From positions 1-64,000 of the forward strand of contig WRHH01000011.1 in NCBI GenBank assembly GCA_009783355.1: a stretch of 64,000 bases of DNA. Direction: 5' to 3'. The translations under genes and the position numbers were made by a program. Shown piece by piece: positions 3,136-55,782 of this stretch. The notes beneath the pieces are model-generated. The model ran no database searches. It had not been told where the DNA came from and worked only from the letters and a program-made list of their open reading frames with translations. Source of the stretch: Synergistaceae bacterium. GTDB lineage: Bacteria; Synergistota; Synergistia; Synergistales; Aminobacteriaceae. How positions within the stretch are numbered: the stretch's first letter is position 1; each line of letters begins with the position of its first letter.

Positions 3136-3230
3136 TCTTCGTTCACCTCCCCATTAAAGATTTATCCAAATATACTAACACAGAAAGTTATTTTAACATA
3201 TAATTCTGTTTGTGAAAGGGGGGAGTTTCC

Positions 3231-5186
3231 ACGAATCGTAAAATATATGATTTCTTTAAAGAAAATGGAATAATTGCAAACAGATTTCGTAATTATGAGT
3301 ATCGTTCCCAACAGCTTGAGCTTGCAAATGAAGCTTGGGGAGTTTTACATTCTGATAATGAATCGGTGTTTGCGGCGGAGGCGCCTCCCGGAATAGGAAA
3401 AACTTTTGCTTTGCTTGTTCCCGCTATGCTGTACTTAAGTGAAACAGAAAATGATGAATCAAAGCGAATTCTTGTACTCACTGCTGGCATAACGCTTCAA
3501 GAACAGCTAATAGCCAAAGATATACCAAATTTAAATTCATTGCTGGAGCTTGACATGCCATACGGTTTGCTGAAAGGGAGAAGGAATTACGTTTGCCTCA
3601 GAAAAGCAGCAAACCTTGATAATTCCGGATATCTTGATTTCAACCAGGATGGAGGTCACGCTTCGCTTGTAATATCTGAATGGCTCCGGGTAACAGAGCG
3701 CGGGGACCTGTCGGAACTCTCAATGGCGCCGGATTCTCCCGCCATATTGCATGTGGCGTCAAGCAGTAAAAGTTGTCTCGGTAATAATTGCCCGTTTATG
3801 CGCGGTAGTTGTTTCGTGCATAAAAATTTCAGAATTGCCCAGGATTGGAAAATAGTTGTTGCAAATTACCATTTATATTTTTCTCATGCTGTTATAGGAG
3901 GATTCCCCGTATCTTATGACATCTTGATTTGCGATGAAGCGCACAGGATATCGGACTGCGCGCGTTCAGTAATTGCTGTTGAAGCTTCTGGAGATGATGC
4001 AAAGCGCTTGTTTCGCCCTCGTCAAATTCAACCCTATGAGCAGTTTTTGAGTAAATTCTCGATTAATCTACAGGAAGTATTGGAAAAAATGGATTTGTGC
4101 CGGGTTCACGCCGAATCTTTGTATGACCTTCTTCAATTATTTCGCGATGGCGAAAGCATGACCCGACAGGATGAAGGATTTATAAAAAAGGTTAAGGAGC
4201 TTTCGGCATCAATCGACGCAATGCTAAGGCCGATGCAGCTATTGGACGATGCGGCGGCGGACGGCGCGTTTAATGAGAATTATAATTCTAAAGAGGCGGC
4301 GGAAGTGCTTAACTGGAAAAGGGAAGTAAAAGAGTTTGAGCAAGCTCTCTTGTGGTGCGCGTCTGTCGGAAAATTCCCTGAATGGGCTTACTGGCGTACT
4401 GGAAACGCTGTCTGCAGCGCTCCCGTTAAATGCCCCGAAATTGTCTCGGAGGCAATTAGTATTGGAAAACCTGAAAAGAGTTTTTTCATCTCGGCCACTC
4501 TTACGATTGAAAATGATTTTGACTTCTGGATAAGGGAGACTGGTATTGAGCCGGATAAGACTTTGGTAGTGGATTCCCCTTTTGATTTTCTTTCCCAGAT
4601 GAATGGTGTGATAATCCCGGTTGAAGAGAGAGTTGGGAGTCCGTCATATGATGACCTTGCCGCCCGAGCCGTCGAAAAATTATGCGAAGTGAACGGAGGA
4701 AGGACGCTTGTGCTTCTTTCTTCTATTCGCCTGATGCGTGTTGTTGCATCCCGGATGAAGAGAAGAGCGCGGGAATATAACGTATTGGTTCAAGGAGAAC
4801 ATTCACAGGCTTCACTCTTGAAAAGATTCCGTGAGGATGAAACATCCGTTCTTATCGGTTGCGTATCGTTTAGGGAGGGGGTCGACATTCCGGGCGACGG
4901 TCTTACACAGGTTATTATTGACCGTATCCCCTTTCCTCATCCGCGCGATCCTTTGACTCAGGCGCGCGGGGAGCTTGAAGGGAGAGATTCCTTCATGCGC
5001 GTTACTTTACCCATGGCTAAAATGTTTTTACGTCAAGCGGTAGGGCGCCTGATTCGCAATAAAACGGATAAAGGGCAAGTGGTCATACTTGACGGAAGAG
5101 TGCTTGACCGAAAGGATTGGAAAGTTCTCGAATGCCTGCCGAAATCAAAGTTCACTAGGATGATAATTAAAAACAATGCACAATGA
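3231..5186 (+). CDS. DinG/Rad3-type ATP-dependent DNA helicase (start codon uncertain)
   Basis: Superfamily 2 helicase with Walker A (EAPPGIGKTF), the DEAH box (ICDEAHRISDC) and the C-terminal motif RQAVGRLIRN. Four cysteines between them (one in NYVCLRK, three in CLGNNCPFMRGSC) have the arrangement of the Fe-S cluster of XPD/DinG helicases. Such enzymes unwind DNA 5' to 3' and act in repair or resolution of R-loops. The first canonical start in frame (GTG 3366) lies immediately before Walker A and would delete conserved N-terminal sequence (YEYRSQQLELANEAW, codons 3294-3338), so the protein must begin upstream. The frame is open back to 3216, where AAGGGGGGAG resembles a ribosome site and only ACG at 3231 sits at suitable spacing. 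Either a rare non-AUG start is used or the G run at 3219-3224 carries a one-base error that would connect GTG 3212. About 650 residues. Confidence 0.85.
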   Translation, partial: TNRKIYDFFKENGIIANRFRNYEYRSQQLELANEAWGVLHSDNESVFAAEAPPGIGKTFALLVPAMLYLSETENDESKRILVLTAGITLQEQLIAKDIPNLNSLLELDMPYGLLKGRRNYVCLRKAANLDNSGYLDFNQDGGHASLVISEWLRVTERGDLSELSMAPDSPAILHVASSSKSCLGNNCPFMRGSCFVHKNFRIAQDWKIVVANYHLYFSHAVIGGFPVSYDILICDEAHRISDCARSVIAVEASGDDAKRLFRPRQIQPYEQFLSKFSINLQEVLEKMDLCRVHAESLYDLLQLFRDGESMTRQDEGFIKKVKELSASIDAMLRPMQLLDDAAADGAFNENYNSKEAAEVLNWKREVKEFEQALLWCASVGKFPEWAYWRTGNAVCSAPVKCPEIVSEAISIGKPEKSFFISATLTIENDFDFWIRETGIEPDKTLVVDSPFDFLSQMNGVIIPVEERVGSPSYDDLAARAVEKLCEVNGGRTLVLLSSIRLMRVVASRMKRRAREYNVLVQGEHSQASLLKRFREDETSVLIGCVSFREGVDIPGDGLTQVIIDRIPFPHPRDPLTQARGELEGRDSFMRVTLPMAKMFLRQAVGRLIRNKTDKGQVVILDGRVLDRKDWKVLECLPKSKFTRMIIKNNAQ

Positions 5187-9249: not shown

Positions 9250-9343
9250 ATTTAAATTATTTTAGCAAAACTAATCATAGAGCTTGACCAAATTAGCTTT
9301 TATGGTGTAGAGTTAAATAAATATTTTTGGGAGGGGTATAGGA

Positions 9344-9964
9344 ATGAGTAAATTTGATTTAAAAAAAATTAATATCGATGGTATAAAGCAAAAAGTAAAA
9401 GATATTGATATTCAGAGCGTAAAACAAAACGTAAAGAGTATCAAGAACCATAAATGGTGCCTCATTGTATGCGGTATAGTTATGATTTTACTTGGTTTAT
9501 TTTCAATGTTTCACTCAGACGAAACAATACTTTCTCTTGTTATGCTTTTTGGTTTTGGTTTTGTTGTTTCCGGTATTGCCCATGTTTTTTCATGGTATTT
9601 ATATATGAATTCTCCTGTAGACCACCCTCGCTGGTTTTTGGCTCAAGGCGTTTATGAGATTATACTAGGATTTATTTTTATTGCAAACCTTGGAGTGACA
9701 TACCTTTCCATCCCCTTAATGATTGCTTTCTGGGCTATTTTTGATGGTGTTGTCAGAACGACCGCTTCATATCAATGGAAAAAAGACGGCATAGAAAAAT
9801 GGTGTATACTACTTGCTTCCGGAATAATTTCAATCATTTTTGCCTTGCTATTACTGGCGCGACCTGGGGCAACAGTATTTGCTGCAACATTTATGATTGG
9901 TATTACGCTTCTTGCATGGGGAGTAACAGCTGCATTTGAAGCGTATAAACTTTATAATAATTGA
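9344..9964 (+). CDS. HdeD/DUF308-family membrane protein
   Basis: A 206-residue protein with a polar, lysine-rich N-terminus (about 40 residues) and then six hydrophobic segments arranged as three similar helix pairs, for example WCLIVCGIVMILLGLFSMF, SLVMLFGFGFVVSGIAHV, GVYEIILGFIFIANLGV, WCILLASGIISIIFALLLL and AATFMIGITLLAWGVTAAF. This is the DUF308 repeat pattern of HdeD, an inner-membrane protein linked to acid resistance in enterobacteria. GGGAGGGG precedes the ATG. The gene stands alone between ruvX and the tRNA cluster. Its function here is unknown. Confidence 0.75.
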   Translation: MSKFDLKKINIDGIKQKVKDIDIQSVKQNVKSIKNHKWCLIVCGIVMILLGLFSMFHSDETILSLVMLFGFGFVVSGIAHVFSWYLYMNSPVDHPRWFLAQGVYEIILGFIFIANLGVTYLSIPLMIAFWAIFDGVVRTTASYQWKKDGIEKWCILLASGIISIIFALLLLARPGATVFAATFMIGITLLAWGVTAAFEAYKLYNN

Positions 9965-53446: not shown

Positions 53447-53853
53447 ATGACGTATAAATTCAAAAATGAATTCGCATCGGTCATTTTGGCGATGGCCGAT
53501 TTGATTTTCGCACACGGTAGTGCGGCCGCGTATACTCCGGGATTTATCCGCGCTGCGGACGTCATTCCCGATGCTGTATTGGATATCCGGTACGCGGGAG
53601 AGGACAATTTCGTCGGGTCGAAAATAGACGGGTACGAGCCCCCGAGGCGATCTTGTCAGTGGAGGCAGCAGTCGCTTTGAAACGTGCGGCGGATTCTTTG
53701 AGGGAATGGGGATACGCGCTCATAGTTTTCGACGCCTATCACCCAGCTCAAGCTGTTGAGCGCTGCAAAATGAGCATTATCACAATATTTTCCGGAGTTA
53801 CACCGCCGACGGAGTATTGTTTGCTGTCTGCGGACTCAGGCTGTTCCGCTTGA
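53447..53853 (+). pseudogene. D-Ala-D-Ala dipeptidase (VanX-like, M15D), frameshifted and truncated
   Basis: ATG 53447 after AAGGAGG opens a frame encoding VIPDAVLDIRYAGEDNFVG, KIDGYEPP, the start of VanX-type dipeptidases. Similarity then jumps to the next frame near 53640 (ILSVEAAVALKRAADSLREW, GYALIVFDAYHPAQAVE); one base is apparently missing near the CCCCC at 53639-53643. After about 53760 the VanX sequence is lost, including the GSxHxxGxAxD zinc site. The gene is dead. VanX-like peptidases recycle or remove D-Ala-D-Ala. Confidence 0.75.
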
Positions 53854-53959
53854 TATCCGACGCAGGAAAAGCAAATGCCAAGAAAGAGTTTTAGACATAC
53901 AATATTAATCGCTAAAATAAGCAATCATGCTCCGCGCTTGGGGCAGTCCGGAGGACGCT

Positions 53960-55597
53960 ATGAAAATATTAGGCAAAAAAAAAGAATCACGGGACAAAGT
54001 CATCAATTTTATGGGTGGGATTTCTTACAAACTGAACCCCATCGACACCCTGAAATTGATAACAGCCTCATCAATTTTCGGCGAGCCGGCGTACTACAGG
54101 GACGGCGAGTTCGCCAAAAAATGGCTTAAAGACGCGGTATTCGCCGTCAACGATCTGTTCGCGCCATATGTCGTCATCTGCGACTCGTCCGGCGGCAAAA
54201 AAACGTCGGAGATAATGGAGGAAGCTATTGACGAAGCCCTGTCGTTCGATTTCGGGACGACCGTTAGTTGGGCGGAAACGCTGAGGCACGAGTACGGCAT
54301 GAGGCTGAACCCCCAGGTGATCATGGTCAGGGCGGCGAGGCACCCCGGCAGGCGCGCTTTCACGGACGCCAACAGGGGCGGATTCGGCGAAGCGAACCAG
54401 CGAATAATGAGCCGCGCCGACGAGCCCGCGTCACAGCTTGCGTATTGGCTTTTCAAATACGGCTCAAAGAAGGGCGTCCCGTCCGTTCTCAAAAGAAGCT
54501 GGGCGAAAAAACTGTCGCAGCTGTCACGCTACGAGCTTTACAAGTACAAAAACTCCGGGATAGGTCTCATCGATGCGGTGAGAATAAGCCACGCAAAGGG
54601 CCCCGGCATCGACGAGCTTATGAAAACAGGCACTGTGGAAGTGAAGGACGACTCAGCGACATGGGAGGCGCTGCGCTCTTCCGGGCGTTCGTGGGCTGAG
54701 ATCACGGAGCGAATAGACATGCCGCACATGGCTTTGCTCCGAAACCTGCGGGGCATATTCGAGGAAATAAACGATGGGGAGTTTTGCCAACGCTTGCTGG
54801 AAAAACTGAAAAATGGAGTGAAAGGAGGCAAACAATTTCCGTTCAGATATTGGTCCGCGATGAAGGCCGTATCGGCGTCCGAAGCGAATCACAAAACAGC
54901 GCTCCTGGACGCGCTCGAAGAATGCGTTGACATTGCTGCGGAGGAACTGCCGAAGCTCAAGGGAAAAACCATGTGCCTGTCAGACAATTCCGGGTCGGCG
55001 TGGGGTGCGTTCAACTCCGAGTACGGCAGGGTGACCGTGGCGGAAATCGACAACCTCAGCAGCGTCATAACCGCTATAAACTCCGAGGAAGGTTACGTCG
55101 GAAAATTCGGAGATAGGCTTATCGTCACGCCGATTTTGAAAAGGCGCGGCATTTTGGGGCAGAGCCAGTCGATTTCAAACGGCAGGGACCACGATGTCGG
55201 AGGGAACACCGAAAACGGCGTCTGGATATTCTTTAACGATGCAATAGAAAAAAGCGAACACTGGGACAACATCTTCATTTATTCCGACCAGCAGGCCGGA
55301 CACGGGGGGCTTTACGGCACGGACAAGGGGATACGCGCCTATACCCAAAAAGGTTACGCGGCGGACGGGCGCTATGTCGACGTGGCGAAACTCGCGGCGC
55401 GGTACAGGGAGAGCGTCAATCCGAAGGTGAACGTGTTCAGCGTCCAGACTGCCGGATACAACAACGTCTGCCTGCCCGAGTACGGTTATCGGACGAACAT
55501 CATGTACGGATGGACAGGCAAAGAGCTGCAATTTGCTAAAACGGTCATCGACTTCTGGGATGAACTTGACGGCAGAAACGCAAATGTAAAAAGTTAA
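53960..55597 (+). CDS. Ro60/TROVE-domain RNA-binding protein (Rsr-like)
   Basis: A 545-residue TROVE-vWA protein, the bacterial counterpart of the Ro60 ring that binds misfolded RNA and Y RNA. ATG 53960 (MKILGKKKESRDKVINFMGG) follows GGAGGA; an upstream start at 53927 adds 11 non-conserved residues. HEAT-like TROVE part about 40-330: ITASSIFGEPAYYRDGE; VIMVRAARHPGRRAFTDANR; ASQLAYWLFKYG; LSRYELYKYKNSGIGLIDAV; PHMALLRNLRGIF. The vWA part has the MIDAS CLSDNSGSAWG and ends FSVQTAGYNNVCLPEYGYR. In other bacteria Ro works with a Y RNA encoded nearby and exoribonucleases; a candidate follows at 55617. No rtcB/rtcA genes are in view. Confidence 0.9.
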   Translation: MKILGKKKESRDKVINFMGGISYKLNPIDTLKLITASSIFGEPAYYRDGEFAKKWLKDAVFAVNDLFAPYVVICDSSGGKKTSEIMEEAIDEALSFDFGTTVSWAETLRHEYGMRLNPQVIMVRAARHPGRRAFTDANRGGFGEANQRIMSRADEPASQLAYWLFKYGSKKGVPSVLKRSWAKKLSQLSRYELYKYKNSGIGLIDAVRISHAKGPGIDELMKTGTVEVKDDSATWEALRSSGRSWAEITERIDMPHMALLRNLRGIFEEINDGEFCQRLLEKLKNGVKGGKQFPFRYWSAMKAVSASEANHKTALLDALEECVDIAAEELPKLKGKTMCLSDNSGSAWGAFNSEYGRVTVAEIDNLSSVITAINSEEGYVGKFGDRLIVTPILKRRGILGQSQSISNGRDHDVGGNTENGVWIFFNDAIEKSEHWDNIFIYSDQQAGHGGLYGTDKGIRAYTQKGYAADGRYVDVAKLAARYRESVNPKVNVFSVQTAGYNNVCLPEYGYRTNIMYGWTGKELQFAKTVIDFWDELDGRNANVKS

Positions 55598-55616
55598 AAA
55601 TGCAAAAAGTAAAAAA

Positions 55617-55720
55617 GATCCCCGTGAATTACGAAAGCGATATTTTTTATTGGACTTGAACCAATTTATTGGAGCTGACCCCAATATCACCGATGTAATC
55701 GCTTTCCCGCTACGAGGATC
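55617..55720 (+). ncRNA. Candidate Y RNA beside the Ro gene
   Basis: A 104-base region starting 20 bases after the Ro stop. Its ends pair: GATCCCCGT (55617-55625) with ACGAGGATC (55712-55720), one C-A mismatch; then an asymmetric internal loop (8 and 6 bases) and a perfect inner helix AAAGCGAT (55634-55641) with ATCGCTTT (55698-55705). Enclosed are two 5-bp hairpins with ATTGG/CCAAT arms (about 55649-55665 and 55668-55685). A long end-pairing helix with an internal loop, capped by small hairpins, directly beside a Ro gene, is how known bacterial Y RNAs look. Conserved Ro-contact bases were not verified. Confidence 0.6.
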
Positions 55721-55782
55721 AAAAAAAGTATAACGCTTTTTGAGTGAAAAAACAAATATCTAGTAAAGAGAGGGAACAGTTT

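What the first reader, a model, noticed from the sequence alone, without database searches (positions are those of the whole stretch)
53960..55720. Ro60 (TROVE) gene followed by a candidate Y RNA
Seen: a full-length TROVE-vWA gene and, 20 bases after its stop, a 104-base region whose ends pair in two helices (9 bp with one mismatch, and 8 bp perfect) separated by an asymmetric loop, enclosing two 5-bp hairpins. Known: bacterial Ro proteins bind Y RNAs often encoded beside them. Inference: this is a lineage-specific Y RNA. The twin ATTGG/CCAAT hairpins differ from the tRNA-like YrlA domain, so it may be a new subtype.
Basis: partly seen in the sequence, partly recalled or inferred. Interest (0 to 1): 0.75.

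Follow-up and report, generated by a model that had tools for sequence, protein, structure and literature searches.

The report
Ro60 gene with opposite-strand Y RNA
This gut bacterium carries a gene for the RNA-binding protein Ro60 and, just after it but on the opposite DNA strand, a gene for its partner Y RNA; the RNA belongs to a large, mostly uncatalogued family of tRNA-imitating Y RNAs that also occurs in tandem arrays in big phages.

Summary
The gene is a genuine Ro60 (TROVE plus vWA). The RNA runs on the minus strand, about 55720 to 55611, convergent with Ro, with a -10 box (TATACT) at one end and six T at the other. The "mismatch" seen on the plus strand is a G-U pair on the minus strand. 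A covariance model built without the window or its two nearest kin finds it at 66.7 bits (E 8e-16), minus strand only. Homologs lie beside nearly every Ro gene of this clade: all 20 bacterial genomes checked and 53 of 58 viral loci. Both Y stems and the T-arm show several hundred compensatory changes. Rfam does not recognise the window copy; a sister copy matches YrlA weakly. On the correct strand one of the "twin hairpins" is a canonical tRNA T-arm, so this is a reduced tRNA mimic, not something unrelated to YrlA. The family varies: circularly permuted tRNAs (YrlA-like), natural-order tRNAs inside the Y stem, T-arm only, none, and in phage arrays bare anticodon stem-loops, even two in tandem. 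Verdict: new variant of a known kind. The phage arrays suggest an anticodon-nuclease decoy role (inference).

The parts
53960..55597 (+). Ro60/Rsr homolog (TROVE + vWA), 545 aa
   Evidence: Pfam TROVE 3.6e-7; AlphaFold/Foldseek best matches are all Ro proteins; DxSGS invariant in 14 homologs
55611..55720 (-). Y RNA gene (whole); 5' end near 55720, 3' end in the T-run at 55616-55611
   Evidence: covariance model without window or nearest kin: 66.7 bits, E 8e-16, minus strand only; single copy in own genome
55727..55732 (-). -10 promoter box TATACT, 6 nt before the first stem base; a weak -35 candidate TTGTTT at 55750-55755
   Evidence: a -10 box with at least 5 of 6 matches lies at this place in 17 of 52 Y RNAs on the Y strand and 0 of 52 on the other
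55712..55720 (-). outer Y stem, 5' strand GATCCTCGT
   Evidence: pairs with 55617-55625; compensatory changes across the family
55617..55625 (-). outer Y stem, 3' strand ACGGGGATC
55707..55711 (-). conserved internal loop, 5' side, AGCGG: inferred Ro-binding core
   Evidence: AGC-G invariant in 35 homologs
55626..55632 (-). conserved internal loop, 3' side, GTAATTC (TTC invariant)
55698..55706 (-). inner Y stem, 5' strand GAAAGCGAT
   Evidence: pairs with 55633-55641; 7 of 7 pairs with two-sided changes in A2
55633..55641 (-). inner Y stem, 3' strand ATCGCTTTC
55692..55698 (-). conserved motif TTACATC at the top of the inner stem (family: TTRC[AT]TC)
   Evidence: its first T is also the last base of the inner stem
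55668..55685 (-). hairpin ATTGG-GGTCAGCT-CCAAT, at the position of an anticodon arm but with an 8-nt loop
   Evidence: not a match to any real anticodon loop
55649..55665 (-). tRNA T-arm mimic ATTGG-TTCAAGT-CCAAT (5-bp stem, TTCRANY loop, G53-C61)
   Evidence: 3 of 20,000 insert shuffles; T-arm helix conserved with compensation
55611..55616 (-). T6 run directly after the Y stem: intrinsic-terminator-like 3' end
   Evidence: the simple terminator scan does not list it, whose rule allows only a short stem with a loop of 3-8

Best explanation
A Ro60-Y RNA pair. Shown by sequence: the Ro gene on + and, convergent to it on -, a Y RNA gene with its own -10 box, an outer stem, a conserved asymmetric internal loop (AGCGG / GTAATTC), an inner stem, and a head that holds a canonical tRNA T-arm plus one more hairpin, ending in T6. 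Inferred: the two stems and the conserved loop are the module that binds the rim of the Ro ring and so blocks or gates its RNA-binding surface, as in other Ro-Y complexes; the tRNA-like head presents the complex to a partner (PNPase, which this genome encodes, or tRNA-acting enzymes). The window copy is a reduced tRNA mimic of a family whose other members carry whole tRNA-like domains. Convergent transcription would make read-through from Ro antisense to the Y RNA, a possible second level of control (speculative).
For: Independent model R2 (no window, L002 or L003) finds it at 66.7 bits, E 8e-16, only on -. 58 hits across 46 loci that mostly encode this Ro; 20 of 20 genomes that carry this Ro clade have the RNA, mostly at the Ro locus; 161 hits in 58 viral Ro loci, all on one strand. 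Covariation: 330 two-sided changes in bacterial loci vs 111 in shuffles and at most 99 in slid controls; 697 vs 239 in viral loci; 123 vs 49 on the MAFFT alignment A3, which excludes the window and was not refitted to the model. Strand: -10 boxes 17/52 vs 0/52, G-U cells 70 vs A-C 21, MFE -36.1 on - vs -29.9 on +. T-arm: 20/53 vs 0.004 expected. Sister copy in L002 matches Rfam YrlA, E 4e-6. PNPase present.
Against: No transcript or binding data. The window copy itself has no match in Rfam. Its second hairpin is not a canonical anticodon arm. One Y RNA (G025/L059) was found in a genome where no Ro was detected, though its contig ends 549 bases further on. A2 and A5 were fitted to the model's structure, which inflates pair counts; A3 was not.
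Confidence: 0.88

Rival explanations
1. The RNA is made from the plus strand as the first reader proposed (a Y RNA or 3'UTR structure of the Ro mRNA).
For: The plus strand also folds better than shuffles (z -4.96) and lies 19 bases after the Ro stop.
Against: No promoter- or terminator-like site on +; the outer-stem mismatch is a G-U pair only on -; the T-arm exists only on -; in all viral loci and most bacterial loci the homologous strand is unambiguous.
Confidence: 0.04
2. Only a terminator or other cis-element at the end of the Ro gene, not a stable RNA.
For: The minus-strand stem ends in T6.
Against: The T-run serves the minus strand, not the Ro mRNA; the head with T-arm, the internal-loop sequence and the -10 box are conserved features that a terminator does not need; homologs also sit upstream of Ro and in arrays.
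Confidence: 0.03
3. A degenerate, non-functional remnant of a YrlA-type Y RNA.
For: D-arm and acceptor arm are missing while relatives (L002, L026, L059) have them; the genome is a draft MAG.
Against: Y stems, internal loop, T-arm, -10 box and T-run are all intact and it is among the best-scoring members of the family (the window is part of the model). T-arm-only and headless members are common beside intact Ro genes.
Confidence: 0.05

Closest known systems
YrlA bacterial Y RNAs (Rfam RF02553; Salmonella YrlA, PDB 6CU1)
   Same: Encoded beside a Ro/Rsr gene; two stems around an asymmetric internal loop; tRNA-mimicking head. Relatives of the window RNA have T-arm, closed acceptor and D-arm in the same circularly permuted order (permutation of 6CU1: PMC11472068).
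   Different: Window copy keeps only the T-arm and has no RF02553 match; best relatives score 30-37 bits, far below the 69-bit cut-off. Extra outer stem and core AGCGG/AUUC; many members have a natural-order tRNA body, bare anticodon arms or no tRNA part.
Deinococcus radiodurans Y RNA / Rsr (RYPER with PNPase)
   Same: Ro homolog with a neighbouring Y RNA; this genome has PNPase.
   Different: Ro only about 13% identical to Rsr 2NVO in the fold comparison; PNPase tethering untested here.
Ro/TROVE genes of large phages (e.g. Bacillus phage G gp540, Thermus phage phiLo Ro60)
   Same: Bacillus phage G Ro is 54.6% identical over 97% and its locus carries the same Y RNA family; the phiLo Ro60 structures are among the best fold matches.
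   Different: The window copy is chromosomal by its neighbours, single, and convergent with Ro; phage copies are often arrays on the Ro strand.

Membership tests
Y RNA (general) | gene beside or with a Ro60 gene | tested here: met
   19 bases from the Ro stop; RNA present in 20/20 genomes with this Ro, mostly at the Ro locus
Y RNA (general) | 5' and 3' ends pair in a conserved, interrupted stem | tested here: met
   two stems with covariation
Y RNA (general) | physical binding to Ro | not testable with these tools
   needs pull-down or gel shift
YrlA (Rfam RF02553) | score above the family cut-off (69 bits) | tested here: not met
   window: no match up to E 10; sister L002 35.1 bits
YrlA (Rfam RF02553) | tRNA-like head with T-arm, acceptor and D-arm | tested here: not met
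   window has the T-arm only; its insert is too short for the test of circularised inserts; relatives do have all three arms
Ro60/Rsr protein | TROVE toroid plus vWA with MIDAS | tested here: met
RYPER (Rsr-Y RNA-PNPase) | Y RNA tethers PNPase | not testable with these tools
   PNPase gene present; interaction untested

The most novel reading that the evidence does not exclude
The window RNA is a host-resident, reduced member of a Ro-bound family of tRNA decoys. In large phages the same family forms tandem arrays in which different members imitate different tRNAs (Lys-UUU, Asn-GUU, Ser-UGA, Tyr-GUA, Leu, Thr and others), as whole tRNA bodies inside the Y stem, as permuted tRNAs, or as bare anticodon stem-loops, sometimes two in one RNA (Lys-UUU + Leu-UAA; Arg-UCU + Gly-UCC). 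With Ro as stabiliser or delivery platform they would bait host tRNA-cutting defences.
Probability: 0.3. Interest if true: 0.85.

Novelty: new variant of a known kind. Interest (0 to 1): 0.58.

Why it matters
It shows that bacterial Y RNAs extend well beyond what Rfam's YrlA model catches, that the putative Ro-binding stems are constant while the tRNA-like head is exchanged, reduced or replaced by anticodon arms, and that bacteria and large phages share this Ro-Y clade. This makes an open question testable: why bacterial Y RNAs imitate tRNA at all. Phage tRNAs are already known to rescue phages from tRNA-cutting defences (PMC11555353), and a competitive-inhibitor role for YrlA against an anticodon nuclease has been suggested (PMC7790460).

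Tried and rejected
Plus-strand Y RNA (rejected, see rivals). Rfam scan of the window at gathering score and of the region at E up to 10: nothing. The simple promoter/terminator scan found nothing on either strand; the -10 box and T-run became convincing only by comparison across loci; the T-run itself is common but not universal (13 of 52 with at least 6 T in 10). Window hairpin 55668-55685 as an anticodon arm: 8-nt loop, no match to real loops, not claimed. A loose motif scan gave many false candidates and was replaced by a stem-aware scan and the covariance models. Key Y RNA papers (Chen 2014, Wang 2018, Sim 2018, Sim 2020) are not in the library (the Sim 2020 DOI tried may not have been the right one), so whether anticodon-arm-bearing Y RNAs have been described could not be checked there; searches of the held library showed no mention.

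Full report
Observation. The protein is a true Ro60: Pfam TROVE E 3.6e-7, PDB profile hit to TROVE structures 9l5y/9kop, AlphaFold model pTM 0.80 whose 13 best fold matches are all Ro proteins. The RNA folds far better than shuffles on both strands.

Strand. Five lines put the RNA on the minus strand. (a) The outer-stem mismatch on + is a G-U pair on - and the MFE is lower there. (b) A TATACT box ends 6 nt before the first stem base and T6 follows the last; across 52 homologs such a -10 box (at least 5 of 6) is present 17 times on the Y strand and never on the other. (c) In paired columns G-U cells outnumber A-C cells 70 to 21, and 16 to 2 in the T-arm. (d) A model built from 26 homologs without the window, L002 and L003 finds only the minus strand of the window, 66.7 bits, E 8e-16. 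(e) All 161 viral hits lie on the Ro strand in one consistent orientation, which fixes the strand of the family independently of the window.

Homologs. The same clade of Ro (about 42-72% identity) occurs in Synergistaceae, Clostridia and one termite-gut bin labelled Spirochaetes, and in 58 viral contigs and Bacillus phage G; two of the 58 are distant (23-26%). A tree interleaves bacterial and viral Ro; the window groups with Synergistaceae L002, L003 and with L025, L026. The Y RNA family was found in 20 of 20 such genomes, in 53 of 58 viral loci (52 in the alignment plus L180 at 21.7 bits), and once in the window's own draft genome. Arrangements differ: upstream on the same strand (Clostridia), upstream and divergent (one Synergistaceae genus), downstream and convergent (window, L002, L003), and same-strand copies or arrays in phages.

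Structure. Conserved: outer stem, internal loop CCG[UA]AGCGG / AUUC[AU]CGG, inner stem, and UURC[AU]UC at its top. Compensatory changes are abundant: 330 cells vs 111 expected in shuffles in bacterial loci, 697 vs 239 in viral loci, 123 vs 49 on the MAFFT alignment that excludes the window. Slid controls collapse in every case. The shuffle control ignores relatedness; the slid control keeps it.

tRNA mimicry. On the minus strand the hairpin 55649-55665 is a canonical T-arm (3 of 20,000 shuffles; 20 of 53 family members vs 0.004 expected). Circularising the inserts of the longer members gives ARAGORN tRNA calls in 17 of 28, against 0 of 560 shuffled controls: circularly permuted tRNA domains as in YrlA, several with an anticodon arm as well. 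The L002 copy matches Rfam YrlA at 35 bits. Phage members also carry tRNA bodies in natural order inside the Y stem, called by Rfam's tRNA model above cut-off (58.9 bits at L124:5668-5740, 56.4 bits at L175:6139-6212). Anticodon loops identical to real tRNA loops on stems of at least 4 bp occur in 12 of 101 viral members against 0.45 expected; in 27 of 57 members with a T-arm an anticodon-like arm lies upstream of it, against 3.7 expected. Three RNAs carry two anticodon stem-loops in tandem, and these form in the predicted folds. The window's own second hairpin does not qualify.

Mechanism. Shown: a Ro gene, and a Y RNA gene with promoter-like and terminator-like ends and conserved stems. Inferred: Ro binds the stem and internal-loop module; the RNA gates Ro's surface; the T-arm-bearing head contacts a partner, PNPase (encoded here) being the precedent from Deinococcus (as summarised in PMC8394870 and PMC7790460). 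For the phage arrays the content of anticodons fits a decoy for tRNA-cutting defences: phage tRNA-Lys counters PrrC and phage tRNA-Tyr counters retron-Eco7 (PMC11555353). This is a hypothesis and nothing here tests it.

Comparison and novelty. The window RNA is a Y RNA by position and structure; binding to Ro is not tested. It is not a member of Rfam's YrlA as defined: no match, no acceptor arm or D-arm. It works like one in outline. It is a new variant of a known kind, and the wider family, with natural-order tRNA bodies and tandem anticodon arms, deserves a catalogue of its own. That several phages carry YrlA is already reported (PMC7765460 citing Sim and Wolin 2018). Whether the natural-order and tandem-anticodon forms have been described in the Y RNA papers not held here could not be checked.

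Noticed in passing
L132:5778-5883, L128:5794-5904, L125:5728-5834 (viral contigs): Y RNAs whose head is two tandem anticodon stem-loops with real anticodon loops (Lys-UUU + Leu-UAA, twice; Arg-UCU + Gly-UCC).
   Followed up: partly
L124:5668-5740, L175:6139-6212, L124:5938-6008 and others: tRNA-model hits above the Rfam cut-off lie inside Y RNA stems; annotation pipelines may list them as ordinary phage tRNAs.
   Followed up: partly
L183:1745-1904, 3222-3728, 9327-9395 (Bacillus phage G): Five confident hits of this Y RNA family around gp540 in phage G, not among the features annotated there.
   Followed up: partly
L025:514-3703 (bin labelled Spirochaetes): Eight Y RNAs upstream of one Ro gene, two more on another contig of the bin; the Ro groups with Synergistaceae, so mis-binning or transfer.
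   Followed up: partly
L059:8514-8660 (G025): Full YrlA-like Y RNA in a 98% complete Synergistaceae genome without a detected Ro gene; the contig ends 549 bases later.
   Followed up: partly
L034:5526-5954, L038:1632-2273, L039:195-791: A small gene that reads like an HD/MESH1-type (p)ppGpp hydrolase sits between Y RNA and Ro in several rumen Clostridia (by eye, not scanned).
   Followed up: no
G059:C65:47330-54383, G046:C1:587190-591441, G073:C86:2895-7746: Two or three Ro paralogs in tandem in one Synergistaceae genus, with divergent upstream Y RNAs.
   Followed up: partly
L027:1517-3917: Array of 17 tRNA genes upstream of Ro and Y RNA in a Mogibacterium contig, some with odd anticodon positions.
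   Followed up: no
window 53560-53870: Upstream of Ro, a broken reading frame that looks like a D-Ala-D-Ala dipeptidase remnant (by eye only).
   Followed up: no
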